Source: Xestospongia bergquistia (lineage: Eukaryota > Porifera > Demospongiae > Haplosclerida > Petrosiidae). From it: a DNA stretch of 64,000 bases. Positions within the stretch are counted from its first letter, which is position 1. Every line of letters begins with the position of its first letter. The position numbers and the translations under genes were made by a program. The stretch spans positions 3,639,821-3,703,820 of the forward strand of contig OZ014417.1 in assembly GCA_963965975.1 (NCBI GenBank), read 5' to 3'. This document shows positions 2,053 to 58,559 of the stretch, piece after piece. The notes under the pieces were generated by a model, which was not told where the DNA came from, searched no databases, and saw only the letters and a list, made by a program, of their open reading frames with translations.

Positions 2053-4500
2053 ATGGCAGATGTAATGCAAGAATTGTGTGACTACGAAAAGAGAAGAATA
2101 GGGAATATTAAAAAGAATATTGAACTCACGAAAACTTTAAGTAAATTACTATTACATGGTAAATAAAAAGTCATAAGATTGTGTAGGTTTAGATGACAAG
2201 TACCAAAACAAGAGTAGAACTAGGAAAAGGAGACGATATAGTAATTGTAGTAATAGTAGCAGTGATAGTGGAGATGAATGGATACCTGCTATAGAGACTT
2301 GTGTGATGAAGAAAAAACCAAATAATATCACGAGAGGTAATAAACTTGTAAATTAAATATGAATGTCATTTTGTTGTGTTTAGTTCCAGTAGTTGAGACT
2401 GCAGTGACCGTCCCTTTATGTGATATTGCAGAACATGTGGTAAGTATTTGATATAACTGTAATGTTGGGCTATCCCTCTCAATGTTAGGATCATCAACAT
2501 ATGAGTATCTTGAAGCAGCAAAAACCACAACAAAAGAAATATTACCAATTTATAAAGGGGGAGGAGCCTTCATTTGAGAGCCTTGATTACAAGTTGTCTA
2601 ATGAGTTTTTTGAGTTATTTGGAGATGATAATATTGAACAATATGAAGACTTTGAAGGATTTGATATTGAAGATGTGTAAGTTAGATTATATTAGTATTG
2701 CTGATGTATTTTCTTAATACAGTGGTGATGTACCTCAGTGTCCAGTTAGTGAAAGATATTCTATGAGATTAAGTCGCCAAAAAGAATACAGAGAAGATGA
2801 ACTATCTGATGAAGATGAATATCTCTGTAAGTTGAGAATGAATTGGTTACTTCTACAACTTTTGTTACTAGTTTGTGAGGACTGTGAGGAATTTCATCAT
2901 GGTGACTGTCCTGTTCATGGACCCTTACTGACTCTAGATCCTTCTAGTGGTCATAATGAAGCATCTCTACAATACACTAGTATATTTGTTCCAGCTGAAT
3001 TAACTGTTAAACCTTCTAAGATACCCAATGCTGGTCTGGGTGTTTTTGCTACACAGTTTATACCTCGTAGAGTTAGATTTGGTCCTTATGAAGGAAAGAG
3101 AGTGTTAAAAGAAGAGCTAACTGAAGGAGAAGATACTAGCTACATGTGGGAGGTACTGTAATAAAGTAATAAAAAGAATTAATTATTTTAATTTTTTCAG
3201 GTAAAACATTTTGGAGAGGAGTCATATTATATTGATGGTCAATCAGATAAGGAAAGTAATTGGTTACGATTTATTAACTGTGCTCGCAATGAAAATGAGC
3301 AGAATTTAGTAGCTTTTCAGTATCATGGTAACATCTATTATCGTTCATTCAAGCATATCTATCCTGGTAATGAACTCTATGTATGGTATGGTGAACAATA
3401 TGCAAGAGAACTTGGGATTAAAATTAGTTTTGAAGAAGGTAGAGTAATTGTTTTGACAGAAATAACTTTACTATCTATTTTTAGATGATTGTCAACTTTA
3501 TAACTGCAAAAATTGTGGAAGTAGTTTTGTTTTGAAATCTAATTTTGATTTGCATCTTCAACGTAATCCTAACTGTCTTTCTGCTAATCCTCAATGTTTT
3601 ACTTGTCAAAAATGTCAAGAAAGTTTTTGTGAATTGTATCAATTACAAGACCACATTCGTAAACATGAGCTATTTAATGTAAAAGAAGAAAATCAAAAAA
3701 AGGGGCTCGTTTCCAGTGATGAACTGGTAGTTGGAAAAACAACTAACATTTGTGATTATTGTGGAAAGAAATTTCTGTTTCAGTCATTATTAAGAAGACA
3801 TCTTAGTATACACACTGGTGATAAACCTTACCAATGTCAGTACTGTAGGAAAGGATTTAATCAAAGCAGTAATCTCAAAACTCATCTTCGTATGCACACT
3901 GGTGATAAACCGTACCAATGTCAGTACTGCGGAAAAGAATTTAGTCAGAATGGTAGTCTCCAAAGTCATCTTCATATACACACTGGTTATAAACCTTACC
4001 AATGTCAGTACTGTGGAAAAGAATTTAATCGGAATAGTAGTCTCCAAACTCATGTTCGTATACACACTGGTGATAAACCTTACCGATGTCAGTACTGTGG
4101 AAAAGGATTTAATCAAAGTTATCATCTCCAAATTCATCTTCGTATACACACTGGTGATAAACCTTACCAATGTCAGTACTGTGGAAAAGGATTTAGTCAT
4201 AATGGTAGTCTTAAAAATCATCTTCAGATACACACCGGTGATAAACCTTACCACTGTCAGTACTGTGGAAAAGGATTTAGTCATAATGGTAATCTTAAAA
4301 ATCATCTTCGGATACACACTGGTGATAAACCTCACCAATGTCAGTACTGTAGAAAAGGATTTATTCAAAAAAGTCATCTCCAAACTCATCTACGTATTCA
4401 CACTGGTGATAAACCTTACCAATGTCAGTACTGTGGAAAAGGATTTAGTCAGAATGGTAGTCTCCAAAGACATCTTGGTATTCATCTCAAAAACAGTTAA
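2053..4500 (+). CDS. PRDM9-like: PRDM9-like gene, copy A (KRAB-like, SSXRD, PR/SET, C2H2 array), apparently intact
   Basis: Eight exons join in one frame (706 aa): 2053-2140, 2187-2336, 2384-2439, 2489-2676, 2723-2826, 2872-3152, 3201-3438, 3485-4500. All seven introns are 45-49 bp, GT-AG. In the PRDM9 family the SET domain trimethylates H3K4/K36 and the fingers choose meiotic recombination sites in the nucleus. Visible parts: KRAB-like start (LCDYEKRRIGNIKKNIELT) leading to DSGDEWIPA, which mirrors the PRDM9 KRAB tail; acidic exon 4; SSXRD-like RYSMRLSRQK near residue 172; zinc knuckle CEDCEEFHHGDCPVH near 197; SET core with NCARNENEQNLVAFQYH and LYVWYGEQY; two isolated fingers; nine array fingers from residue 458. 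A downstream GT at 2159 would extend exon 1 by 18 nt but leave a 28-bp intron, so it was not used. Expression is unknown. Confidence 0.88.
3751..4488 (+). repeat. Tandem C2H2 zinc-finger array of copy A (nine fingers, 84-bp period)
   Basis: Nine fingers with linker and core HTGDKPYQCQYCGKGF. Helix residues -1/2/3/6 read F-S-L-R, Q-S-N-T, Q-G-S-S, R-S-S-T, Q-Y-H-I, H-G-S-N, H-G-N-N, Q-S-H-T, Q-G-S-R. Framework residues are nearly constant. The 84-bp (28-codon) period explains long open antisense and off-frame readings here, which are not genes. Confidence 0.93.
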
Positions 4501-5699: not shown

Positions 5700-6850
5700 C
5701 AAAACTCGTATCCTATATTATTGAGTTATTGTCTAATTAGAGTAAATACACAAAAACGGACATATCACTTTCGGCCGTATCTAGCAGGATAAACTACCAA
5801 GAGAATTGGCATTTCTAAAATACTGAAATTAATTTCGCTGTTATCAAAACACATTTAAGGAATTATAAAAAAATTCAGAAAGCTCCTCTGAGCAGGGACA
5901 GTCTTTTCAAAAAAATCGGAAGCATGGGTGCGCGGACAAGTATCATGTAAATTCATCCAGTTCCTCAAACTCCTTGAAGAACAAAGCTGAGCAAGAGAAC
6001 TATGGTCGTTGCTATCAAGTACTGACTGAGCTACAACAGTATACTCAAAGTTCTATTTTCTGTTAACTGATGAGAGTTTCTCGACAAAAATTAGTTGAGT
6101 AGGTGTGGTTGATAAAATCGTCCACGCTTGAAGGTGCTTTTCTGGGGATTAATTTTGTGCATTTAATAAGATGTGATTGCTTTTAAATGATTACTGAATT
6201 ATTGGTTCAGAACTTATTGTGTTTCACTATCTGTAACTGCACTCTATTCATAACGAAATTATATTTACTAAGTTTTCAAATTCTGAATAATACCTGATTA
6301 CTAATAAGTTCCTCATATAGGTAATTTTTCTCTTATATTATTATTATTGATTGATCTATTTATAATAGTCTCATAATCCAAATATATTGTCTACAGTCAT
6401 AAGCTATGGCTATTTTTATCAAGTAATATGTGAACTATAAAAGTCATACAATTAAAACTTTATTATCTAAAAACAAGTTGTTCAGGAAATCAGCTGAATA
6501 GGTGTGGCCATGATTATTCACTAACACATATAGGTAGGTAATTTATATTATAATAAAGTAAAGGCTGTTAAAAGGTTCAATGACAACTGACAAGGTGTTA
6601 CATTATATGGTAACATGTAGTCAGTTTTTCAGGTGGTCAATTAAAAGTTTCATTAAATGACATTCAAGAGTTTGGTTCATCTAGTTTAGATACATTATCA
6701 CATAGAGAACAATACCAAGTCCCTCTTGGTTTTCTCTTAAGATTAGCACATTCAAAATGCCACCAGCCAATTGAGCAATTTGCATTGTCACAATAAATCA
6801 TTCTGCCAAACTGCCCCTGCCTGCAAATGCAGTACTTTTCTACATCAAAT
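5700..6850. other. No gene recognised
   Basis: AT-rich sequence with short non-conserved ORFs. I see no domain, repeat family or splice pattern supporting a gene. Confidence 0.6.
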
Positions 6851-6851
6851 A

Positions 6852-8203
6852 TTATTGCAAGTGAGCAATATATGTGTTATACATACATATTGGAGACTCA
6901 ACAATGGTTGTCTTTTGAAATTCAGAACTTGTCTGAAACTGAGAATGTGTCAGAGACTGAGTAATAGGGGCTAGATTATCATAACTATCAATAAAATAAA
7001 AGATAACAGATAAACTGACCTATTGAAGACTTGACAGAGGTTGCCTTTTAAGACTGATAAAGTTTCCGAGACTAAATACCAGAGGCTATATTATTATAAC
7101 AATGAATAATATAAAAGAAATAGACAAACTGACCTATAGGAGATTTGACAGTGGTTGTCTTTTGAGACTGAGAATGTGTCTGAGATTGAGTACTAGAGGC
7201 TAGATTATAATAACAATAAATAATATAGAAGATATCAGACAAACTGACCTAGGAGACTTGACATTGGTTGCCTTTTGAGACCCACAACGTGTCTGTAATA
7301 TAGTTCTAGAGGCTAAATTATTATACCAATAATAATACAAATAATAACAGACAAACTGACGTATTGGAGACTTGACAGTGGTTGTCTTTTGAGAATAAGA
7401 ATGTGTCCGAGACTGAGTACCAGAGGATAGATTATAACAATGAATAATATAGAAGAAAACAGACAAACTGACCTATTGGAGACTTGACAGAGGTTGCCTA
7501 TTGAGACTTAGAACGTGTCTGAGACTGAGTACCATAGACTAGATTATTATAACAACGAATAATATAAAAATAACAGACAAACTGACTTATTGGAGACTCA
7601 ACAGTGGTTGCCTTTTGAGATTGAGAACATGTCCCTAACATAGTATTAGAGGCTAGATTATTATAACAATGAATAATAGAAAAGATAACAGACAAACTGA
7701 CCTATTGGAGACTTGACAGTGGTTGCCTTTTGAGAGCGAGAACATGTCCTTAACCTAGTACTATAGGCTAGATTATTATAACAATGAATAATAGAAAAGA
7801 TAATAGACAAACTGACCTATAGGAGACTTGACAGTGGTTGTCTTTTGAGACCGAGAACGTGTCTGAGATTGAGTACTAGTGGCTACATTATTATAACAAT
7901 GAATAATAGAAAAGATAACAGACAAACTGACCAATTGGAGACTTGACAGTGGTTGACGTTTGAGACCAAGAACGTGTCCGAGATTGATTACTAGAGGCTA
8001 GATTATTATACCAATGAATAATAATAAGGATAACAGACAAACTAACCTATTGGAGACTTGGAGATACCTGCAGCACCTGATGTGGTATATAAACTAATTC
8101 AATAAATTAACACTATACCTTCATTTAAACTGTTCTCTAGTTCTTCAGGCATTGTAAACAATGAGCAACCTATAACCACAGCATAATATAACAGTACCAT
8201 CAT
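6852..8203 (-). CDS. Candidate secreted protein gene built of tandem 66-bp exon / 49-bp intron modules (possibly decaying)
   Basis: Exon 1 (8119-8203) encodes MMVLLYYAVVIGCSLF, a signal-peptide-like start, and ends in phase 1. A 42-bp intron and a 30-bp exon (8047-8076) ending in KSPI follow. Then come ten module exons of about 66 bp: 7932-7997, 7817-7882, 7702-7767, 7587-7652, 7473-7538, 7361-7426, 7249-7312, 7134-7199, 7020-7085, and the last, 6852-6970, which runs to a TAA stop. Introns run GTCAGTTTG...TAATCTAG. Modules encode 22-residue units such as STQSQTRSRSQK followed by TTTVKSPI. Each 66-bp exon is phase 1-1, so skipping keeps frame. Modules 7473, 7249 and 7020 carry a stop or length change, and module 7361 has lost its AG acceptor. 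I do not recognise the family. The gene could be an expressed repeat protein with exon skipping or a young pseudogene. Confidence 0.55.
7020..8076. repeat. Tandem repeat, period about 115 bp, nine to ten units
   Basis: Units starting GACCTATTGGAGACTTGACA recur at 112-115 bp intervals. Conservation spans both the putative exon part and the putative intron part, indicating recent amplification of the whole module. Confidence 0.95.
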
Positions 8204-8454: not shown

Positions 8455-9475
8455 ACTTACTTCTTTTTTTTCTTCCTTCCTTCTCATTTCTTCTAATTTC
8501 CTTTTCTCTTTTTCTTCAATTGCCATACGATTCTCTGCACTTGTTAAGACTTTTCCAGACTTCTTTTGTGGTATAACTGGAAGCTTACAAAGGGTAATGA
8601 TCTTTCTTCTTCTAAAATCTTTGAAAAAAAAGATGATTTTTGAAGAACTGCAGATTGTGAAGGTTGTTCAGGAGGATGACAGACAAAAGGATACATATTA
8701 CTTTCAACACTTGCAATGGAAGGACAACTTTGAAAACAAGGATCAAATGCTGGCACAAAAAATGGAAAATATGGAAGAGTGTCTTGTGGGTAATATGGGT
8801 ATCTAGTATCTGGTGGGTAATGTGGGTATTGATAAAACATACAAGTGGTGGCATCATTAGCAACTGTGTCATTGTGGGAGAATTGGGAACTCAAATCAAG
8901 CTCTTGATCAACGAATCCACTACCATCATTAGTTGATTGATGCTTTTTTTTCCATTGGTTATAACGATCATCAGAAGTAATATCATAACCTTCTTGGACC
9001 TTTTTTGAAATCTTGATTCTTCCTCTTCTGTGAATACAGCTTCTTGAGTAATGGGAGACTTGTATCGTCGTGCAGGGCTATATGGTAGTATAAATTTCAG
9101 TCCCGTGCACTGTGCAAGTGTGCTTGTGGCATCTTTTCTCAATGGAACAATAGCATCCCTATTCAGGGGTAGATTCCTGTGTATTTGAATCCAGCTTGAA
9201 TATTTTTCATCGTCATTGCACATGCCCATGCCTCACTAAATAGTTTTGAAAAGGTGAATCTTCTGACTACGCTGCCCAGATTATCCTCTAAAAACTTTCG
9301 GCATACCTGCCTCCATGAAGACTTTAATGGTCCAAATGGACCTTTATCCAGAGGCTTGGTTTCATGTGATGAATGTGGGGGTAGACAAAAAATGATCACT
9401 TTCTCTTCTGCTGCCTTATTAATTACTGAAGGATTATAGTGTGAAGAATGACCATCAAGTAGGAGTAGAATTGGT
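8455..9475 (-). pseudogene. Pogo/Tigger-type DDE transposase relic (C-terminal part)
   Basis: Reading the minus strand from 9470: ILLLLDGHSSHYNP (second acidic residue of a DDE_1 catalytic core), then FCLPPHSSHETKPLDKGPFG, a PLKSSWRQ stretch, NIQAGFKYTGIYP, and after a one-base deletion near 9165 LNRDAIVPLRKD. A proline/tyrosine-rich tail follows, then KSGKVLTSAENRMAIEEKEK, a C-terminal motif common in pogo/jerky-like transposases. The N-terminal HTH and first Asp are missing, and the sequence abuts a PRDM9-type upstream flank at about 9480. DDE_1 enzymes cut and paste DNA transposons; this copy is inactive. Confidence 0.8.
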
Positions 9476-11787: not shown

Positions 11788-13828
11788 CTAGTGTATACGA
11801 AGATGAGTTTGTAGATTAGAACTTAGATTAAATCTTTTTCCACAGTACTGACATTGGTAAGGTTTATCACCAGTGTGTATACGAAGATGAGCTTTAAGAT
11901 TACTATTATTACTGAATCCCTTTCCACAGTACTGACATTGGTAAGGTTTATCAACAGTGTGTATACGAAGATGTTTTTGAATATCACTATTACGACTAAA
12001 TCCTTTTTCACAGTACTGACATTGGTAAGATTTATCACCAGTGTGTATACGAAGATGAGTTTGAAGATTACCATTCTGACTAAATCTTTTTCCACAGTAC
12101 TGACATTGGTAAGGTTTGTCACCAGTGTGTATACAAAGATGAGTCCTCGATGATGACTGACAAGAAAGTTTCTTTCCACAATAATCACACATATTATCTG
12201 CATTCTCAACTAGTAGTTTATCATTGGAAATGAGTTCTTTCTTAAGATTCCTTTCTTTTACATCAAGTTGCTCATGTTTACAAATGTGGTCTTGTAACTG
12301 ATACAATTCACAAAAAATTTCTTGACATTTTTGACAAGTAAAACATTGAGGATTTAGCAGCAAGACAATTAGGATTAAGTCAAAGATGCAAATCAAAATT
12401 GGTTTTCAAAACAAAACTACATCCACAATTTTTGTAATTATAAAGTTGACAATCATCTAAAAAAAGATACTAAATTGTATTTCTGTCAAAAGAATTACTT
12501 AACCTTCTTCAAAACTAGCTGTAATCCCAAGTTCTCTTGCATATTGTTCACCATACCATACATAGAGTTCATTACCATACATAGAGTTAGTTAGCTCTTC
12601 TTTTAACACTCCCTTCCTTCATAAGGACCAAACCGATAATAGATGTTACCATGATTCTGAAAAGCTATTAAATTCTGCTCATCTTCATTGCGAGCACAGT
12701 TAACAAATCGTAACCAATTACTTTCCTTATCTGATTGACCATCAATATAATATGACTCCTCTCCAACATGCATCACCTGAATAAATTAAAATAAATAATA
12801 CTTTTTAAATTATTTTATTACAGTACCTCCCACATGTAGCTAATATCTTCACATTTAATGAGCTCTTCTTTTAACACTCTTTTTCCTTCATAAGGACCAA
12901 ACATAACTCCACGAGGTATAAACTGCTTAGCAAAAACACCCAGTCCAGCATTGGGTATCTTACAAGGTTTAACAGTTAATTCAGATGGTACAAATAAAGT
13001 AGTGTATTGTAGAAATGCTTCATCATGACCACTAGAAGGATCTAGAGTTAGTAAGGGTCCATGAACAGGACAGTCACCATGATGAAATTCCTCACAGTTG
13101 TCACAAACTAGTAACAAAAGTTGTAGAAGTAACCTTATTGATACTAAACTTACAGAGATATTCATCTTCATCAGATAGTTCATCTTCTCTGTATTCTTTT
13201 TGGTGACTTAATCTCTTAGGATTTCGTTTACTAACTGTACACTGAATTACATCACTACTGTATTAAGATAAATACATTATCAATACTGATATAATCTAAC
13301 TTACACATCTTCAATATCAAATCCTTCAAAGTCTTTATATTCTTCATTATCATCATCTCCAAATAACTCAAAAAACTCATTAGACAATTTGCAATCAAGG
13401 CTCTCAAATGAAGGCTCCTCCCTCTCTACAGGTTTGTAATATTTCTTCTGCTGTGGTTTTTTTCGCTTTAAGGCTCTTGTAACTTAGTGATTTAAACACA
13501 AAAGAATAATGTCCATATTTTATTTAGAAGTCTATTATTTCTCATGTCATATGTGTTTTTTTGTCATCACACAAGTCTCTAGAGCAGGTATCCATTCATC
13601 TCCACTATCACTGCTACTATTACTACAATTACTATATCGTCTCCTTCTCCTTTTTCCAGCTCTACTCTTGTTTTGGTACTTAGCATCTAAACCTACACAT
13701 AATCTTTATCACTTTTATTTACCTTGTAATAGTTTTTTACCTAAAGTTTTGATGATTTCAATATTTTTTTAAATATTCTCTAGTCTTCTCTTCTCATAGT
13801 CACATAATTCTTGCATTATATCTGCCAT
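11788..13828 (-). pseudogene. PRDM9-like: PRDM9-like pseudogene, copy B
   Basis: Recognisable exons: 1 (13741-13828), 2 (to 13692), 4 (about 13305-13492), 5 (13154-13257), 6 (12827-13107), 7 (12504-12776), 8 (to 11788). Exon 3 is absent. Lesions: an in-frame TGA near the end of exon 2; loss of the AG acceptor before exon 4; a block in exon 7 replaced by exon 6-like sequence (net +35 bp, frameshift); CGA to TGA in the first isolated finger of exon 8 with a following one-base insertion; and a two-base deletion at 11788 that truncates the array after five fingers, with a further finger surviving as frameshifted sequence to about 11710. The SET part of exon 6 is still open. Non-functional as a full protein. 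Confidence 0.88.
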
Positions 13829-16329: not shown

Positions 16330-16690
16330 TTTTAACACTCTCCTTCCTTCATAAGGACCAAACCTAACTCCATGAGGTATAAACTGCTAAGCAAAAAAAA
16401 TTATACATAAATTGTACAAGAAACACTACTGTCACGGGTTCATTAGACTTCACTACTCCACTAGCTACAATGACACTATATTCTGTTACTGTGCTCTGGA
16501 TCTTTGGGACTAGTCATCCTGGAACTACTTTAACTTCTCTAGATCTGTATTGTCTATTGTTTGTGTAGTGTTATTACTATGGAAACTTAATAAAGTCTAA
16601 TGTATATGTAAATAATTATCAAAAATGGTCACTAACTATTTTAGATGAATAAGATACCTTTGGAGATTGCCATTTTAGTTGAATCAGCAG
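16330..16690 (-). pseudogene. Solo relic of a further PRDM9-like copy
   Basis: At 16330-16395 the minus strand reads QFIPHGVRFGPYEGRRVLK, a piece of SET exon 6 with a stop just upstream. From 16440 to 16690 it carries the 3' flank typical of the family and a decayed last-finger end before the TTCATCTAAAATA terminus. Everything between is deleted. A second copy of the 3' flank (about 17030-17200) belongs to copy C. Confidence 0.65.
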
Positions 16691-17201: not shown

Positions 17202-19458
17202 TTATTTTAGATGAATATGAAGATGTTTTTGGAGACTACCATTATGACGAAATCCTTTTCTACAGTACTGACATTGGTAAGGTTTATCACCAGTGTGTAT
17301 ACGAAGATGAATTTGGAGACTACTACTATGATTAAATCTTTTTTCACAGTGCTGACATTGGTAAGGTCTATCACCAGTGTGTATACGAACATGAGTTTGG
17401 AGATTACCATTCAGACTAAATCTTTTTCCACAGTACTGACATTGGTAAGGTTTATCACCAGTGTGTATACGGACATGAGTTTGGAGATTAAAGCTTTGTT
17501 TAAATCCTTTTCCACAGTACTGACATTGGTAAGGTTTGTCACCAGTGTGGATACGAAGATGTTGTTTAAGATTACTATTCTGAATAAATCCTTTTCCACA
17601 GTACTCACATTGGTAAGGTTTATGACCAGTGTGTATACAAAGATGAGTTTGGAGACTATGATTCTGACTAAATCCTTTTCCACAGTAATGACATTGGTAA
17701 GATTTATCACCCATGTGTATAGGAAGATGTTTTCGAAGACTACCATTATGACTAAATCCTTTTCCACAATACTGACATTGGTAAGGATTATCACCATTGT
17801 GTATACGGAGATGAGTCCTCAACGATGACTGACGAGAAAATTTCTTTCCACAATAATCACACATATAATATTCATTCTCAACCAGCAGTTTATCATTGGA
17901 AATGAGCCTTTTTTTATTTATTTCTTTTTCATCAAGTTGCTCATGTTTACGAATGTGGTCTTGTAACTGATACAATTGACAAAAATTTTCTTGACATTTT
18001 TGACAAGTAAAACATTGAGGATTAGCAGCAAGACAATTTGGATTATGTCGAAGATGCAAATCAAAATTGGCTTTCAAAACAAAACTACTTCCACAATTTT
18101 TGCAATTATAAAGTTGACAATTATCTAAAAATAGATAGTAAATTTTATTTCTGCCAAAAGAATTACCCTACCTTCTTCAAAACTAGCTGTAATCCCAAGT
18201 TCTCTTGCATATTGTTCACCATACCATACATAGAGTTCATTACCAGGATAGATATGCTTGAATGAGCGATAATAGATGTTACCATGATACTGAAAAGCTA
18301 TTAAATTTTGTTCATCTACATTGCGAGCACAGTTAATAAATCGTAACCAGTTACTTTGCTTATCTGATTGACCATCAATATAATATGAACCCTCTCCAAA
18401 ACGCCTTACCTGAATAAATATAACTAATTAATAATTTTGTATTTATTACAGTACCTCCCACATGTAGCTAGTATCTTCTCCTTTAGTGACCTCTTCTTTT
18501 AACACTCTCCTTCCTTCATAAGGACCAAATCTAACTCCACGAGGTATAAACTGTGTAGCAAAAACACCCAGTCCAGCATTGGCTATCTTAGAAGGTTTAA
18601 CAGTTAATTCAGATGGAACAAATACAGTAGTGTATTCTAGAGATGTTTCATCATGACCACTAGAAGGATCTAGAGTTAGTAAGGGTCCATGAACAGGACA
18701 GTCACCATGATGAAATTCCTCACAGTTGTCACAAACTAGTAACAAAAGTTGTCGAAGTAACCATATTCATAATGAACTTACAGAGATATTCATCTTCATT
18801 AGATACTTTATCTTTTCTGTATTCTTTTTGGTGAAATAATTTCTTAGAATATCGTTCACTAACTGGATACTGAGGTATATCACCACCGTATTAAGAAAAA
18901 TATATCAACAATACTGATATAATCTATCTTACACATCTTTAATATCAAATCCTTCAAAGTCTTCATATTCTTCATTATTATCATCTCCAAATAACTCAGA
19001 AAATTTATTAGACAACTTGCAATCAAAGCTCTCAAATGAAGGCTCCTCCCCCTCTACAGGTTGGTAATATTTCTTCTGCTGTGTTTTTTGCTGCTTCAAG
19101 ATTCTTGAAAGTTGGTGATCTAAACACAAAAGAAAGGTGTCCATATTTTATTTACAAGTTCATTACCTCTAATGACATCATTTGGCTTTTTCTTCATCAC
19201 ACAAGTCTCTCTAGCAGGTACCCATTCATCTCCAGTATCACTGCTACTATTACTACAATTACTATATTGTCTCCTTCTCCTTTTTTAAACTCTACTCTTT
19301 TTTTGGGACTTAACATCTAAACCTAGACACAAAAGTTATCACTTTTATTTATCATACAATAGTATTATACCTAAAGTTTTCATGTGCTCAATATTCTTTT
19401 CAACATTCTCTAGTCTTCTCTTCTCATAGTCACATAATTCTTGCATTACATCTGCCAT
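17202..19458 (-). CDS. PRDM9-like: PRDM9-like copy C: open SET and zinc-finger exons, damaged N-terminal exons
   Basis: Exons: 19371-19458, 19167-19322, 18933-19119, 18782 to about 18885, 18455-18735, 18172-18409, 17202-18124. Exons 5-8 are open and encode the knuckle, SET core and eight array fingers. Lesions: a TAA at 19285-19287 in exon 2, and CAG to CGG at the exon 5 acceptor; an in-frame AG 27 nt downstream could substitute. Exon 3 is missing, but the exon 4 acceptor sits so that exon 2 joins exon 4 in frame. Upstream, the conserved 15-mer box is gone, replaced by sequence including a GGGGAGGG stretch. It could be a pseudogene, or encode a SET/finger protein lacking KRAB if started downstream. 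Finger -1/2/3/6 sets differ from those of A and E. Confidence 0.7.
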
Positions 19459-30863: not shown

Positions 30864-33234
30864 TTATTTTAAGATGAACACGAAGATGACTTTGGAACTA
30901 CCATTCTGACTAAATTCTTTTCCACAGTGTTGACATTGGTAAGGTTTATCACCAGTATGTATACAAAGATGAGTTTTGAGAGGACTGCTTTGATTAAATC
31001 TTTTTCCACAGTACTGACACTGGTAAGGTTTATCACCAGTGTGTATACAAAAATGATTTTGGAGACTACCATTCTGACTAAATTCTTTTCCACAGTACTG
31101 ACATTGGTAAGGTTTATAACCAGTGTGTATACGAAGATGCGTTTGGAGATGACTGCTTTGATTAAATTTTTTTAAACAGTACTGACATTGGTAAGGTTTA
31201 TCACCAGTGTGTATACGAAGATGAGTTTGAAGATTACAATTCTGACTAAATCCTTTTCCACAGTACTGACATTGGTAAGGTTTATCACCAATGTGTACAT
31301 TAAGATGAGTTTGGAGATAACTGCTTTGTTTGAATCCTTTTCCACAGTACTGACATTGGTATGGTTTTTTACTAGTGTGTATACGAACATGAGTTTGAAG
31401 ATCACCATTCTGACTAAATCCTTTTCCACAGAACTGACATTGGTAAGGTTTGTCACCAGTGTGTATACGAAGGTGATACTTCATTGATGACTGACGCAAA
31501 ATTTTCTTTCTATAATAATCACAATTGTTATTTGGATTTCCAACTACCAGTTTATCATTGGAAATGAGCCCCATTTTTTGCTTTTCTTCTTCTACATCAA
31601 ATAGCTCATGTTTACGAATGTGGTCTTGTAACTGATACAATTCACAAAAGCTTTCTTGAAATTTTTGATAACTAAAACATTGAGGATTAGCAGCAAGACA
31701 ATTAGGATTATGTCGAAGATGCAAATCAAAATTACATTTCAAAACAAAGCTACTTCCACAGTTTTTGCAATTATAAAGTTGACAATCATCTAAATAGTTA
31801 TAATTAGTAAAGTTATTACTGTCAAAAGGGTTACCTTACCTTCTTCAAAATTAGTTGTAATCCCAAGTTCTCTTGCATATTGTTCACCATACCATACATA
31901 GAGTTCATTACCAGGATAGATATGCTTGAATGAACGATAATAGATGTTACCATGATATTGAAAAGCTACTAAATTCTGCTCATCTTCATTGCGAGCACAG
32001 TTAATAAATCGTAACCAATTACTTTCCTTATCTGATTGACCATCAATATAATATGACTCCTCTCCAAAACGCTTTACCTGAATAAATTAAAATAATTAAT
32101 ACTTTCTATTATTTTATTATAGTACCTCCCACATGTAGCTAGTATCTTCTCCTTCAGTCAGCTCTTCTTTTAACACTCTCCTTCCTTCATAAGGACCAAA
32201 TCTAACTCTACGAGGTATAAACTGTGTAGCAAAAACGCCCAGACCAGCATTGGGTATCTTAGAAAGTTTAACAGTTAATTCAGATGGAACAAATACAGTA
32301 GTATATTGTAGAGATGCTTCATCATGACCACTAGAAGGATCTAGAGTTAGTAAGGGTCCATGAACAGGACAGTCACCATGATGAAATTCCTCACAGTTGT
32401 CACAAACTAGTAACAAAAGTTGTCGAAGTAACCATATTGATACTGAACTTACAGAGATATTCATCTTCATCAGATACTTTATCTTCTCTGTATTCTTTTT
32501 GGTGAAATAATTTCTTAGAATATCGTTCACTAACTGGATACTGAGGTATATCACCACTGTATTAAGAAAAATATATCAACAATACTGATATAATCTAACT
32601 TACACATCTTCAATATCAAATCCTTCAAAGTCTTCATATTCTTCATTATTATCATCTCCAAATAACTTTAAAAACTTGTTACACAACTTGCAATCAATGC
32701 TCTCAAATGAAGGCTCCTCCCCCTCCACAGGTTGGTAGTATTTCTTTTGTTGTGGTTTTTGTTGCTTCAAGACTCTTGTAACTTGATGATCCTAACATTA
32801 TTGAGAGGGATAGTCCAACATTACAGTTGTATCAAACACTTACCACATGTTCCGCTATATCACACAGAGGATCTCTCACTGCAGTCTCAACTACCAGAAC
32901 TAAACACAACAAAATGACATTCATATTTAATTTAAAGTTTATTACCTCTTGTGATATCATTTGGTTTTTCTTCATCACACAATTCTCTAAAGCAGGTATC
33001 CATTCATCTCCACTATTACTGCTACTATTACTACAATTACTATATCGTCTCCTTTTTCTGACTCTACTCTTGTTTTGGGACTTGTCATCTAAACCTACAC
33101 ACAATCTTTATCACTTTTTATTTACTATGTAATAGTATTTTACTTAAAGTTTTCGTGAGTTCAATATTCTTTTTAATATTCTCTAGTCTTCTCTTCTTAT
33201 TATAGTCGCATAATTCTTGAGTTGCATCTGCCAT
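30864..33234 (-). pseudogene. PRDM9-like: PRDM9-like copy D (frameshifts in exon 2 and last finger)
   Basis: Exons: 33144-33234, 32946-33094, 32844-32899, 32604-32791, 32453-32556, 32126-32406, 31840-32077, 30864-31789; introns 42-52 bp. Exons 3-7 are open and match A and E closely. Exon 2 is one base short of a multiple of three: an A-run coding lysines (about 32966-32971) has five A where six are needed, shifting the frame unless this is an assembly error. In exon 8 the first C2H2 finger reads CFSYQKFQESF (both Cys lost), the first array finger reads CDYYRKKI, six good fingers follow, and a one-base deletion near 30895 scrambles the last. Likely a recent pseudogene or a gene with one sequencing-sensitive site. 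Confidence 0.8.
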
Positions 33235-49529: not shown

Positions 49530-50805
49530 TTGTCTCTTGGGGACAAAGGGAAAGCATGGACAAGCAGGACTAAAGGCAATGTTAAAAGATGCCGTAGGAT
49601 GTCTTTTACATGCTATCCATTAGTCCCTTTACTTACTGTCTATTAGTCCCTTAGGGACAAGGGGAAGGGATGGACAAACAGGACTAAAGGCAATGTTAAA
49701 GGAGGCCATAGGATGTCTTTTACATGCTATCCATTAGTCCCTTAGGGACAAGGGACAAGGGGAAGGGATGGACAAGCAGGACTAAAGGCAATGTTAAAGA
49801 AGGCCATAGGATGTCCTTTTCATACTGTCCATTAGTCCTTTAGGGACAAAAGGAAGGGATGGTCAAGCAGGACTAAAGGTAATGTTAAAGGAGGCCATAG
49901 TATGTCCTTTACTTTTCATTAGTCCCTTAGGGACAAGGGACAAGGGGAAGGGATGGACAAGCAGGACTAAAGGCAATGTTAAAGAAGGCCATAGGATGTC
50001 CTTTACATACTGTCCATTAGTCCTTTAGGGACAAAAGGAAGGGATGGTCAAGCAGGACTAAAGGTAATGTTAAAGGAAGCCATATTATGTCCTTTACTTT
50101 TCATTAGTCCCTTAGGGACAAGAGGAAGGAATGGTCAAGCAGCACTAAAGGCAGAGTTAAAGGAGTCCAAAAGATGTCCTTTACTGTTCATTAGTCTCTT
50201 ATGGACAAAGAGAAGGGATGGACAAGCAGGACTAAAGGCAGTGTTAAAGGAGTCAAAGGATGTCCTTTACGGTCCATTAGTCCCTTATGGACAAAGGGAA
50301 AGGATGGACAAGCAGGACTAAAGGCAATGTTGAAGGAGGCCATAGGATGTCCTTTACTTACTGTGCATTAGTCCCTTAGGGACAAGGGGAAGGGATAGAC
50401 AAGCAGGACTAAAGGCAATGTTAAAGGAGTCCAAATGATGTCCTTTACTGTTCATTAGTCCATTATGAACAAAGGGAAGGGATGGACATGCAGAACTAAA
50501 GACCATATTAAAGGAGTCCAAAAGATGTCCTTTACTGTCCATTAGTCCCTTATGGACAAAGGAAAAGGATGGACAAGCAGGACTAAAGGCAATGTTGAAG
50601 GAGCCCATAGGATTTCCTTCACTTAATGTCCATTAGTACATTAGGGACAAGGGGAAGGAATGATCAAGCAGGACTAAAGGCAATGTTAATGGAGGCCATA
50701 TGGATGTCCTTTACTTACTGTTCATTAGTCCCTTAGGGCAAGGGAGAGGGATGGATAAGCAGGACTAAAGCCAATGTTAGAGGAGGCCATAGGATGTCCT
50801 TTACT
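49530..50805. repeat. Tandem satellite 2, about 88-95-bp units, around 13 copies
   Basis: Units carry TTAGTCCCTTAGGGACAAGG, GGAAGGGATGGACAAGCAGG, ACTAAAGGCAATGTTAAAGG and CCATAGGATGTCCTTTACTT. GTCCCTTAGGGAC is a perfect palindrome. Shares CCCTTAGTCC/ATTAGTCCCTTA and GGATGTCC words with satellite 1. Repetitive ORFs on both strands are not considered genes. Confidence 0.93.
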
Positions 50806-51229
50806 TAATTACCAGTTACTAAAAGTCTTACTGGCACATGGACCTTCTACTTATATTGAATTCCAAGATTTGTCACTCAGAGAATGACAGTGAGTCAAAC
50901 AAGAGTCTAGAAAAGCAAAGCACCATTACTCTCAAATGTAATGATACGATAAGCAGCTTTTTGAAAATCCTATATAATTGTCAACACAAAGCATGATTAA
51001 TTGTTGTTAAATTTACATGAAAGAATTGTTCAACTTTTTCCATTTCCTCAGGAGTACAATAAGGTTGTGTACATTGTAGTTGGAGAGTGTTATGAAGTTG
51101 CCATGTGTCATAGTGAGAATTTAGTACAAATATTGGACTGGAAATGTAAGGATAAGTATACTAATGGAAGAAAGGAAAGTTTTGTACCAATATTCCTTCA
51201 ACAGTAAAGTACCTGAGCCATAATACACT

Positions 51230-56756: not shown

Positions 56757-58437
56757 CTAGTGTTCATCTTGATCATATTCATTGTCCTGCTGGTGTTGAT
56801 TTTGATTCTCTTCATTATTCTGAGGGTGTATTACTAAATCAGTATTAATCCACGCAAGAATTCCTGAAACTGCAACAATGGTTAATATAAAGGATAATAC
56901 CAGCTGATTTGTTTTATTTTCTAAGTTAGTAGGGCCATATACAAGAAGAAATCTTGAAGCATAATATAATATGACAATGAATAATCCCCAAAATAGTAAT
57001 TCATAAATAAGGATTACGAACCACAAACAAGCCTTGGAAAATGGTTTCCACTTACATTTATTTTTGCATCGGTCACAAAAATTTTTACAGCATCTATTAT
57101 AAGGGTTAATTACATCTGAGTAGCAGCGGATACGAAAGTTTTTTACACTGAAGCAGCAGCGGATGCAACATTTACATATATATGTGCAGCAACTAATACA
57201 ACATATTGACTCGTTACAAGCATCAAACAAGTTTTCAGCAAACTTAATTATTGTGTTCCATATTGGAATAGGAACAAACATTAGAGGAATAATGAAAATA
57301 CTACCAATGAAAATTCGTACAGGATAAGCCAGTGAAGCTGTTACTAACCATACACCATGATAAAATAGATAAACAATCCCAAATAGTAAAACAAGTGCTG
57401 CAAATATTAGCCACTTTTGACATTGGTGCTTTAATTGATCCTTATAATTATCATTAGCATTTAGTTTATCCCAGTAAAAGATTTTCATTGCTGTTGCCAC
57501 TGACATTACAAAATTAAATCCAAAAATACCAGATGCTACACAAGGTATAGGGAAGAGATATAAAAATCTTTTGTCATTATGTGAAGTGTTATATTTCCTG
57601 TACAAGTAAATGTCAAAGCTAGTTATTATAACTGCAGCAACCAGCATCACAGGAAAAGCCATTCTTTCAATGGCAAAGAAAAATATTTTTTCATCTTTGA
57701 ATTGTAATATTGAGGAGTCCTCTTTATTAATAATTATTACAGACTTGTAGTAATTAAATAAAAAGCTTTTTAGAAGTTTCCCTAAATGTTCTCGTGCTTT
57801 CTTGATACACATAAGGACATGAGCTATAATTAAACACCCAATGGTTGAGATTATTAACCATATTGTTATCACTATATTTACTTTGTCATACTCATGACTT
57901 TGAGACAGCTTATAAATATTTTGAAGGTAGCGAGCATTGTATGAATTATTGCCAATTTCTCCAATTTTTGCTAACTAAAATGGAATGTAAAGAATTTAAA
58001 AATAAAATTAATAAAGTTACCTGTTTAGTTAGAGATAGTAATAACTCCTCTTTGTTTAACTTAGTATTATTGCAAAATTGAGGAATTACAAAATACTGTT
58101 CACAAGTGTCACCTAAATCAGCAAGTTCAAATATTAGTGCTCTAAACAGATAGTAGTCTAGAAACATAAAAATAGGATTATCTGGCCAAAAGTAGTCATA
58201 CTCTGCATTAGAATTATTACAAGGTTCCTTATAGCAATAGTGAAAAACTACATAACGAGGAGTTAGCTTGTTATCTTGAGGATAGAAGGTCTCCTGAATC
58301 TTTACTATGTTTTCATTTGTTTGAAAATGATCTTTGAGAGATTCTAGATCCTCAACACATGTATCAGCATTTGAAACAAAAGTATTGAAATGTATTGAGA
58401 GTATACAAACAAGAATTAAAATAACTCTGCTTCCCAT
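56757..58437 (-). CDS. Unrecognised secreted-ectodomain 7TM protein with cysteine-rich loop
   Basis: Two exons, 58021-58437 and 56757-57974, joined by a 46-bp GT-AG intron in frame, 544 aa. The start has a clear signal peptide (MGSRVILILVCILSIHF). The ectodomain of about 130 residues contains several Cys (ADTCVEDL, YCYKEPCNNS, CEQYFVIPQFC). Then come about seven hydrophobic segments, beginning IVITIWLIISTIGCLIIAH and ending LVLSFILTIVAVSGILAW. Between TM5 and TM6 lies a loop of about 70 residues with about 18 Cys (ESICCISCCTYICKCCIRCC ... CKNFCDRCKNKC). The tail is acidic and Asn/Gln-rich (NNEENQNQHQQDNEYDQDE). I do not recognise the family; an orphan receptor, channel or transporter is possible. 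A truncated paralogue lies at 54790-55450, showing local duplication. Confidence 0.8.
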
Positions 58438-58559
58438 AGTGAGCGCTGTTACCTGCGTAATCTATATAACACGATCTCTTTATTTATATCCTTCTTTGAC
58501 AGGAAATATCTTACGTCAGAATTATTTATACTGTCAATAACGACAGAGTTAAAAATGCA

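What the first reader, a model, noticed from the sequence alone, without database searches (positions are those of the whole stretch)
2053..4500. Full KRAB-like/SSXRD/SET/zinc-finger PRDM9 architecture in a probable sponge-grade genome
Copies A and E splice into continuous 706- and 678-codon readings with every PRDM9 module in order, including an N-terminal KRAB-like segment with the (D)S-D/G-DEW-P tail and an SSXRD-like motif. The complete four-module form is the one tied to directing recombination in vertebrates. If the host is an early-branching animal, this bears on how old the system is.
Basis: partly seen in the sequence, partly recalled or inferred. Interest (0 to 1): 0.88.

Follow-up and report, generated by a model that had tools for sequence, protein, structure and literature searches.

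The report
Expanded PRDM9 gene family in sponge
Two intact genes in this sponge window are relatives of PRDM9, the protein that picks recombination sites in mammals, and they belong to an unusually large family of copies in the same genome, one of which looks much more like a working mammalian-type PRDM9 than these two do.

Summary
Copies A (2053-4500, +) and E (41551-39180, -) splice through seven GT-AG introns of 45-52 nt into open readings of 706 and 678 codons. The host is a demosponge by COX1. The SET tree places these genes in a sponge PRDM9 group next to Amphimedon, and the three catalytic tyrosines are kept in both. KRAB-like and SSXRD-like segments beat every decoy on bilaterian PRDM9 profiles, but Pfam shows neither, and only the second half of the KRAB-A box is present.

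That full-length PRDM9 goes back to sponges is already in print (PMC13186367). What I did not find in print is the scale: 64 loci spanning both SET exons, 54 on one contig. Of 45 loci read, 16 are open; B, C and D in the window are not. One copy outside the window (C7:898169-900975) has near-identical fingers differing mainly at DNA-contact positions, the signature of hotspot-setting PRDM9. A and E show it no better than some disabled copies. No meiotic role is shown.

The parts
2053..4500 (+). Copy A, intact PRDM9-type gene, 706 aa; exons 2053-2140, 2187-2336, 2384-2439, 2489-2676, 2723-2826, 2872-3152, 3201-3438, 3485-4500
   Evidence: GT-AG introns of 45-49 nt at all seven junctions, open reading; five window copies aligned
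2065..2124 (+). KRAB-like half box, A residues 5-24 (MQELCDYEKRRIGNIKKNIE)
   Evidence: bilaterian PRDM9 profile 21.2 bits, best decoy 8.5; model positions 10-29 only
2648..2662 (+). acidic DFEGF motif in the linker of A (residues 152-156)
   Evidence: FxGF present in 16 of 16 intact copies; resembles the FxGF motif of LEDGF/IBD-binding proteins (PMC6877644, passages)
2751..2876 (+). SSXRD-like segment of A, residues 171-197, interrupted by intron 5; its end abuts the zinc knuckle
   Evidence: 18.3 bits, best decoy 9.3
2874..2918 (+). pre-SET zinc knuckle of A (CEDCEEFHHGDCPVH)
   Evidence: aligned with PRDM9 of known structure; pattern in all 16 intact copies
3003..3419 (+). PR/SET domain of A (residues 240-362), interrupted by intron 6; three catalytic tyrosines kept
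   Evidence: PRDM2_PR 1.2e-44; PRDM9 4c1q 3.1e-45; tyrosines
3751..4500 (+). C2H2 array of A in the last exon; 84-nt repeat unit
   Evidence: tandem repeat 3799-4481, 84 nt x 8.1; fingers and contact residues
39180..41551 (-). Copy E, intact PRDM9-type gene, 678 aa; exons 41551-41464, 41414-41259, 41211-41156, 41103-40916, 40868-40765, 40718-40438, 40389-40152, 40105-39180
   Evidence: re-found by the spliced aligner
11788..13828 (-). Copy B, disabled (several stops, a frameshift, an extra stretch in the SET part)
17202..19458 (-). Copy C, disabled (stop in exon 2, lost acceptor before exon 5); lacks exon 3
30864..33234 (-). Copy D, one frameshift in exon 2, otherwise open
16330..16395 (-). 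SET-exon fragment
   Evidence: tblastn of copy A, 82% over 22 aa; also found in the genome search

Best explanation
A and E are intact members of a lineage-specific expansion of PRDM9 in a haplosclerid demosponge. Expected mechanism: the last-exon zinc-finger array binds a DNA sequence; the PR/SET domain, with knuckle and catalytic tyrosines kept, methylates histone H3 on nearby nucleosomes (H3K4 and H3K36 in mammals); the N-terminal half-KRAB, acidic tail and SSXRD-like segments recruit partners. Shown here: architecture, ancestry, catalytic residues, family size, and contact-residue diversification of the fingers. Inferred: splicing, expression, methylation, and use. Most likely at least one member, best candidate C7:898169-900975 outside the window, marks sites of meiotic recombination; A and E may share that job or have taken another.
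For: Open spliced readings with shared junctions. PRDM9 is the best PDB match, 158 bits against 101 (PRDM14), 95 (PRDM12) and 84 (PRDM11). Tree of 54 rows: 19 host copies (16 intact, 3 nearly) together (97/95), with Amphimedon (100/95), inside the sponge rows (95/93). KRAB-like and SSXRD-like bilaterian profiles: A and E above all 10,460 decoys. All three tyrosines in 13 of 16 intact copies, A and E included. Mean dN over mean dS 0.61 (N-terminus) and 0.47 (knuckle+SET) over 120 pairs. Over 16 arrays, first finger of each dropped, positions -1, 2, 3 and 6 are the four columns of 21 with the highest nonsynonymous variation (1 of 5985 sets), pN/pS 1.76 against 0.71 elsewhere; at least as high as in A 3, in E 23 and in C7:899216 18 of 5985 sets. 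Copy C7:898169-900975: P = 0.508, within the range of complete vertebrate PRDM9. One TP6A_N (SPO11-type) match in the genome.
Against: No transcript, germline or methylation data. Only half a KRAB box, and Pfam shows neither KRAB nor SSXRD. P of A (0.341) is marginal and of E (0.308) is below all complete vertebrate genes listed; 11 disabled copies score 0.217-0.410, so P does not set A and E apart from dead copies. Four of 16 intact copies lack the KRAB-like signal; 3 of 16 have F at the Y276 position, and in one of these my pattern found no residue for Y341. No zf-CW and PWWP matches above cut-off share a contig, so no ZCWPW1/2 was found. A single hotspot-setting protein does not need dozens of paralogues, which fits a regulatory family better.
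Confidence: 0.6

Rival explanations
1. The copies form a repertoire of sequence-specific chromatin regulators, for instance against transposable elements, analogous to the vertebrate KRAB zinc-finger family, and have little to do with recombination.
For: 64 loci spanning both SET exons, in dense clusters with open and disabled copies side by side; diversified contact residues between paralogues; a DDE transposase remnant in the window; an independent multi-copy clade in Dysidea.
Against: The SET domain with its tyrosines is kept in 13 of 16 intact copies, whereas vertebrate KRAB zinc-finger proteins lack it (recalled); one copy shows the homogenised, contact-concentrated array of hotspot-setting PRDM9.
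Confidence: 0.3
2. A and E are recent duplicates on the way to decay, without function of their own; one or a few other copies do the work.
For: 29 of 45 loci read are not intact by my criterion, including B, C and D beside them; close pairs such as E and C7:3907927 (dS 0.039); P of A and E inside the range of disabled copies.
Against: Open frames and splice sites throughout; dN exceeds dS in 0 of 120 pairs of intact copies over the aligned non-finger part; contact columns enriched within A (3 of 5985 sets) and E (23 of 5985 sets) on their own.
Confidence: 0.2
3. They are members of another PRDM subfamily that only resemble PRDM9.
For: Pfam labels the domain PRDM2_PR and shows no KRAB or SSXRD; the tree had only three outgroup rows on long branches and the split from them has 84/71.
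Against: PRDM9 is the best structure match by 57 bits; knuckle, SSXRD-like and KRAB-like segments in PRDM9 order. The Pfam label is generic: it also marks annotated PRDM9 proteins.
Confidence: 0.03

Closest known systems
Vertebrate PRDM9 (KRAB-SSXRD-SET-C2H2 array)
   Same: module order, knuckle, SET with three tyrosines, post-SET finger, array in the last exon
   Different: only the second half of the KRAB-A box; SSXRD too diverged for Pfam; many paralogues; contact-concentrated homogenised array clear in one copy outside the window, weak in A and E
Sponge PRDM9-like proteins: Halichondria panicea P0004, Dysidea avara P0008, and P0003 (gene id Em0017g774a, which I take as Ephydatia muelleri)
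   Same: match over 94-99% of query residues 1-380, same half KRAB; SSXRD-like signal in P0004 and P0003
   Different: 37-42% identical over that region; P0004 and P0003 have two FxGF motifs where A and E have one; P0008 is below decoys on the SSXRD profile and Dysidea has its own multi-copy clade
Amphimedon queenslandica protein P0006
   Same: nearest relative of the host copies in the tree, 67% identical over 49% of the query region; same order Haplosclerida as Xestospongia
   Different: the deposited model starts at the knuckle, so its N-terminus is unknown; the only row named Amphimedon among the 120 listed of 164
Vertebrate KRAB zinc-finger family
   Same: large clustered birth-and-death family with diversified fingers (recalled for vertebrates)
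   Different: no SET domain there (recalled); here SET is kept

Membership tests
PRDM9 | PR/SET domain of the PRDM9 type | tested here: met
   best PDB match PRDM9; tree (only PRDM12, PRDM14 and one sea-anemone PR domain as outgroups)
PRDM9 | three catalytic tyrosines (Y276, Y341, Y357) | tested here: met
   A and E, and 13 of 16 intact copies; Y276 and Y357 named in PMC5519329 passages, Y341 and the mapping are recalled
PRDM9 | SSXRD domain | tested here: met
   bilaterian profile above all decoys for A and E; Pfam shows none and a four-row vertebrate profile is at decoy level; the block abuts the knuckle, so it is not fully independent of it
PRDM9 | KRAB domain | tested here: inconclusive
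   second half of the KRAB-A box above decoys; first half absent; Pfam shows none
PRDM9 | C2H2 array in the last exon | tested here: met
PRDM9 | rapid contact-site evolution and homogenised fingers | tested here: inconclusive
   P 0.341 (A), 0.308 (E), 0.508 (C7:898169-900975), 0.217-0.410 in 11 disabled copies; published complete genes 0.331-1.0, SET-only 0.158-0.331; other C2H2 genes of the host were not ranked
PRDM9 | germline expression, H3K4/K36 methylation, break siting | not testable with these tools
   no RNA, protein or recombination data
PRDM9 | reader genes ZCWPW1/2 in the genome (coupled to PRDM9 in vertebrates, PMC8892340 passages; not strictly defining) | tested here: inconclusive
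   exon-wise search found no zf-CW and PWWP above cut-off on one contig; short exons could be missed
KRAB zinc-finger (KZFP) | complete KRAB-A box | tested here: not met
   first half of the box absent, no Pfam KRAB match shown

The most novel reading that the evidence does not exclude
PRDM9 in this sponge has become a repertoire: dozens of paralogous DNA-binding histone methyltransferases, most serving as sequence-specific chromatin marks across the genome (a SET-bearing counterpart of the KRAB zinc-finger family), with one copy (C7:898169-900975) kept as a mammalian-style hotspot setter. A conserved acidic FxGF motif, rather than a full KRAB box, would tie the proteins to a LEDGF-type or other TND-type reader complex.
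Probability: 0.22. Interest if true: 0.82.

Novelty: new variant of a known kind. Interest (0 to 1): 0.62.

Why it matters
Whether PRDM9 set recombination sites in the first animals is open: the 2026 review traces the function back at least to Euteleostomi and calls it unknown whether the function was kept since the animal ancestor (PMC13186367, passages). This genome offers a direct test: one copy has the molecular signature and the paralogues are natural controls in the same nucleus. It also suggests that a large finger repertoire can arise from PRDM9 with the SET domain kept, outside vertebrates, and that the KRAB-A box was assembled in two steps.

Tried and rejected
Pfam KRAB and SSXRD: no match for the N-terminal pieces of A or for C7:899216 residues before the fingers, and none among the rows shown for whole A and E. 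The six-frame SSXRD search of the genome was uninformative because its controls were silent too. A possible 28-nt first intron was rejected because copy C lacks that donor while the upstream one is kept in all five window copies. Splicing with one reference mis-scored copies without exon 3; a second reference gave the count of 16, so that count depends on my aligner and criterion (start M, no stop or frameshift in the aligned part, at least 3 fingers). One trivial fragment (C7:3656150) was dropped before the count of 45; 29 of 75 loci were not held. The aligner treats a 111-nt in-frame stretch of C7:899216 as an intron; read through, it codes 37 residues, so that protein is 788 or 825 aa. My first P values used 21 positions (where that copy is 0.61, A 0.40, E 0.39); those quoted use the published 28-position formula. 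LEDGF (PF11467) gave no match in the host, against the FxGF idea. Structure prediction was not used. C11:5644109 and C4:9796978 match the PR domain but not closely; I take them as other PR-domain genes and did not follow them. Searches listed no paper on a sponge PRDM9 expansion, and one search (PRDM9 with LEDGF, 11 papers) none on the FxGF motif; I saw listings only, and subscription papers are mostly not held. PMC11600626 on aKRAB losses holds none of the words invertebrate, sponge or cnidaria.

Full report
What is there. In an alignment of the five window copies the intron-1 donor used here is kept in all five. B, C and D are disabled: several stops and a frameshift in B, stops and a lost acceptor in C, one frameshift in D. 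No transcript data were available.

Host. The genome is 146.46 Mb in 21 contigs and the window is C7:3639821-3703820. COX1 from contig 21 is identical over 447 aa to the representative of a cluster of 135 sequences that UniRef names Demospongiae, RepID I6LIL5_XESMU; that XESMU stands for Xestospongia muta is recalled. X. muta and Amphimedon queenslandica are both Haplosclerida. Sponge COX1 evolves slowly (recalled), so this fixes the group, not the species.

Ancestry. The best solved-structure match of A is PRDM9 (3.1e-45), ahead of PRDM14 (8e-28), PRDM12 (3.5e-26) and PRDM11 (7.6e-23). In a tree of 54 SET regions, 19 host copies (16 intact, 3 nearly so) group together (97/95) with Amphimedon (100/95), within a sponge group (95/93); cnidarian and bilaterian PRDM9 form the other side with weaker support (84/44). 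The outgroups were only PRDM12, PRDM14 and one sea-anemone PR domain, on long branches, and the split from them has 84/71. Every species named among the 120 listed homologues (of 164) is an animal; some rows carry no species name.

The N-terminal modules. Pfam shows neither KRAB nor SSXRD: nothing for residues 1-98 of A, only PHD and a PRDM4 ribbon below cut-off for 99-245, neither family in the 25 of 29 (A) and 25 of 26 (E) rows shown for the whole proteins, and neither for C7:899216. Profiles built from 15 bilaterian PRDM9 proteins do respond: KRAB-like A 21.2 and E 19.7 bits, best of 10,460 decoys 8.5; SSXRD-like A 18.3 and E 28.3, best decoy 9.3. On a five-row vertebrate KRAB profile A and E score 11.6 and 11.5 against 7.0 for the best decoy; on a four-row vertebrate SSXRD profile they are at decoy level; the acidic DEWxP block is above decoys for E (15.2) but not for A (9.2 against 9.7). 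The motif DEWxP itself is in 14 of 16 intact copies. The training rows were aligned together with the sponge rows, which may help slightly, and the SSXRD block abuts the knuckle. The KRAB-like match of A covers model positions 10-29 only; 4 of 16 intact copies have no KRAB-like signal. Among 66 fetched proteins with the core motif, 3 of 3 sponge rows and 3 others (P0024, a Clytia protein; P0021, unnamed, whose SET groups with Clytia; P0023, unnamed) lack the FxDIxxYFxxEEW half; a pattern marks it in 44 of the remaining 60 and by eye it is present in 15 of the other 16, the last being truncated. This suggests that the first half of KRAB-A was added in bilaterians.

Catalysis. The three tyrosines are Y in A and E and in 13 of 16 intact copies; three copies have F at the Y276 position, and in one of these (C7:3540367) my pattern found no residue for Y341.

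Family size. A genome search with the SET domain gave 143 exon matches (the tool calls such counts lower bounds), which merge into 75 loci; 64 span at least 380 bp, taken as both SET exons: 54 on C7, 8 on C1, 1 each on C14 and C4. Of 75 loci, 46 were held; one trivial fragment was dropped and 45 were read with my own spliced aligner: 16 are intact, 5 scoring best with the A reference and 11 with a reference that lacks exon 3, in which the next acceptor lies 9 nt further in. The ratio of mean dN to mean dS among the 16 is 0.61 for the N-terminus and 0.47 for knuckle plus SET; dN exceeds dS in 0 of 120 pairs over the whole aligned part, in 1 for the N-terminus, 4 for knuckle plus SET and 11 for the post-SET part. 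The closest pair has dS 0.022, so the copies are distinct, though I cannot exclude that some close pairs are alleles misplaced in assembly.

Fingers. Across the 16 arrays, first finger of each dropped, the contact positions -1, 2, 3 and 6 are the four columns of 21 with the highest nonsynonymous variation (1 of 5985 column sets), with pN/pS 1.76 against 0.71 elsewhere; within single arrays the contact set is matched or beaten by 3 (A), 23 (E) and 18 (C7:899216) of 5985 sets, counting itself. C2H2 genes in general vary there (recalled), so this alone is not specific. By the published statistic (heterozygosity share at contact sites; PMC5519329, part 1 of section 10 and section 25 read), A is 0.341, E 0.308, the 16 intact copies 0.231-0.508 and 11 disabled copies 0.217-0.410; the top is C7:898169-900975 at 0.508. 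Published complete PRDM9 genes range 0.331-1.0 and SET-only genes 0.158-0.331, so E falls below every complete gene listed. In the top copy, fingers 2 onward are nearly identical in DNA and differ almost only at -1, 2, 3 and the residue before -1, with whole blocks of fingers repeated; position 6 does not vary there. That copy also has the best score of the host copies on the bilaterian KRAB-like profile (28.1 bits).

Machinery. One TP6A_N (SPO11-type) exon is present. Two zf-CW exons pass the cut-off, on C9 and C6, and five PWWP exons, on C15, C14 (two), C2 and C12; no contig has both above cut-off, so ZCWPW1/2 was not found. This is an exon-wise search and does not prove absence.

A further motif. 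An acidic DFEGF-type motif lies in the linker of 16 of 16 intact copies, and [FLI]xGF occurs in 23 of 66 fetched homologues (16 of the 23 are closely related amphioxus rows) against 1.2 expected from shuffled linkers. It resembles the DFxGFDE motif of JIL-1 and the FxGF consensus of LEDGF/IBD partners (PMC6877644, passages). The LEDGF family itself gave no match in the host, so the partner, if any, is unknown.

Known or new. A 2026 review states that full-length PRDM9 homologues occur in cnidarians and sponges, citing Oliver 2009 and Ponting 2011 (PMC13186367, passages). Oliver 2009 reports contact-site selection in a sea anemone and does not mention sponges (PMC2779102, passages); Ponting 2011 I did not see. 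Sponge PRDM9-like proteins from Halichondria and Dysidea are already annotated in public databases. The large expansion, the copies without exon 3, and the single mammalian-like array were not found in print by searches, of which I saw listings only.

Verdict. The four-module claim needs the word 'half' before KRAB, and its age argument is known. The new part is the family. If a member sets recombination sites, C7:898169-900975 is the first to test, not A or E.

Noticed in passing
G000 C7:898169-900975 (L028): PRDM9-type copy with near-identical fingers differing mainly at contact positions, and a 111-nt in-frame stretch coding a second DEDFHGF motif.
   Followed up: partly
window 2648-2662 and 16 of 16 intact copies: Conserved acidic FxGF motif resembling LEDGF/IBD-binding motifs, also in amphioxus, sturgeon (P0104) and caecilian (P0071) PRDM9.
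   Followed up: partly
window 9163-9474 (-) and 6664-6876 (-): Remains of a DDE transposase (DDE_1, E 1e-11) and, nearby, a weak PHD finger below the Pfam cut-off.
   Followed up: no
window 6934-8060: Tandem array of a 115-nt unit, 9.9 copies.
   Followed up: no
window 49532-50806: Tandem arrays of 87-nt and 114-nt units containing GGACAAAGGGA.
   Followed up: no
window 56757-58461 (-): Two adjacent long open frames (405 and 171 aa) without a Pfam match at E<=0.01, membrane-protein-like by eye.
   Followed up: no
G000 C7 3.43-3.77 Mb and 3.86-4.01 Mb: Copies spanning both SET exons lie mostly on the minus strand in the first block (27 of 29) and all on the plus strand in the second (9 of 9), with near twins such as E and C7:3907927, as if part of the cluster were duplicated in inverted orientation.
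   Followed up: partly
G000 C6:3154917-3200446: Additional COX1-like stretches with stops inside, probably nuclear copies of mitochondrial DNA.
   Followed up: no
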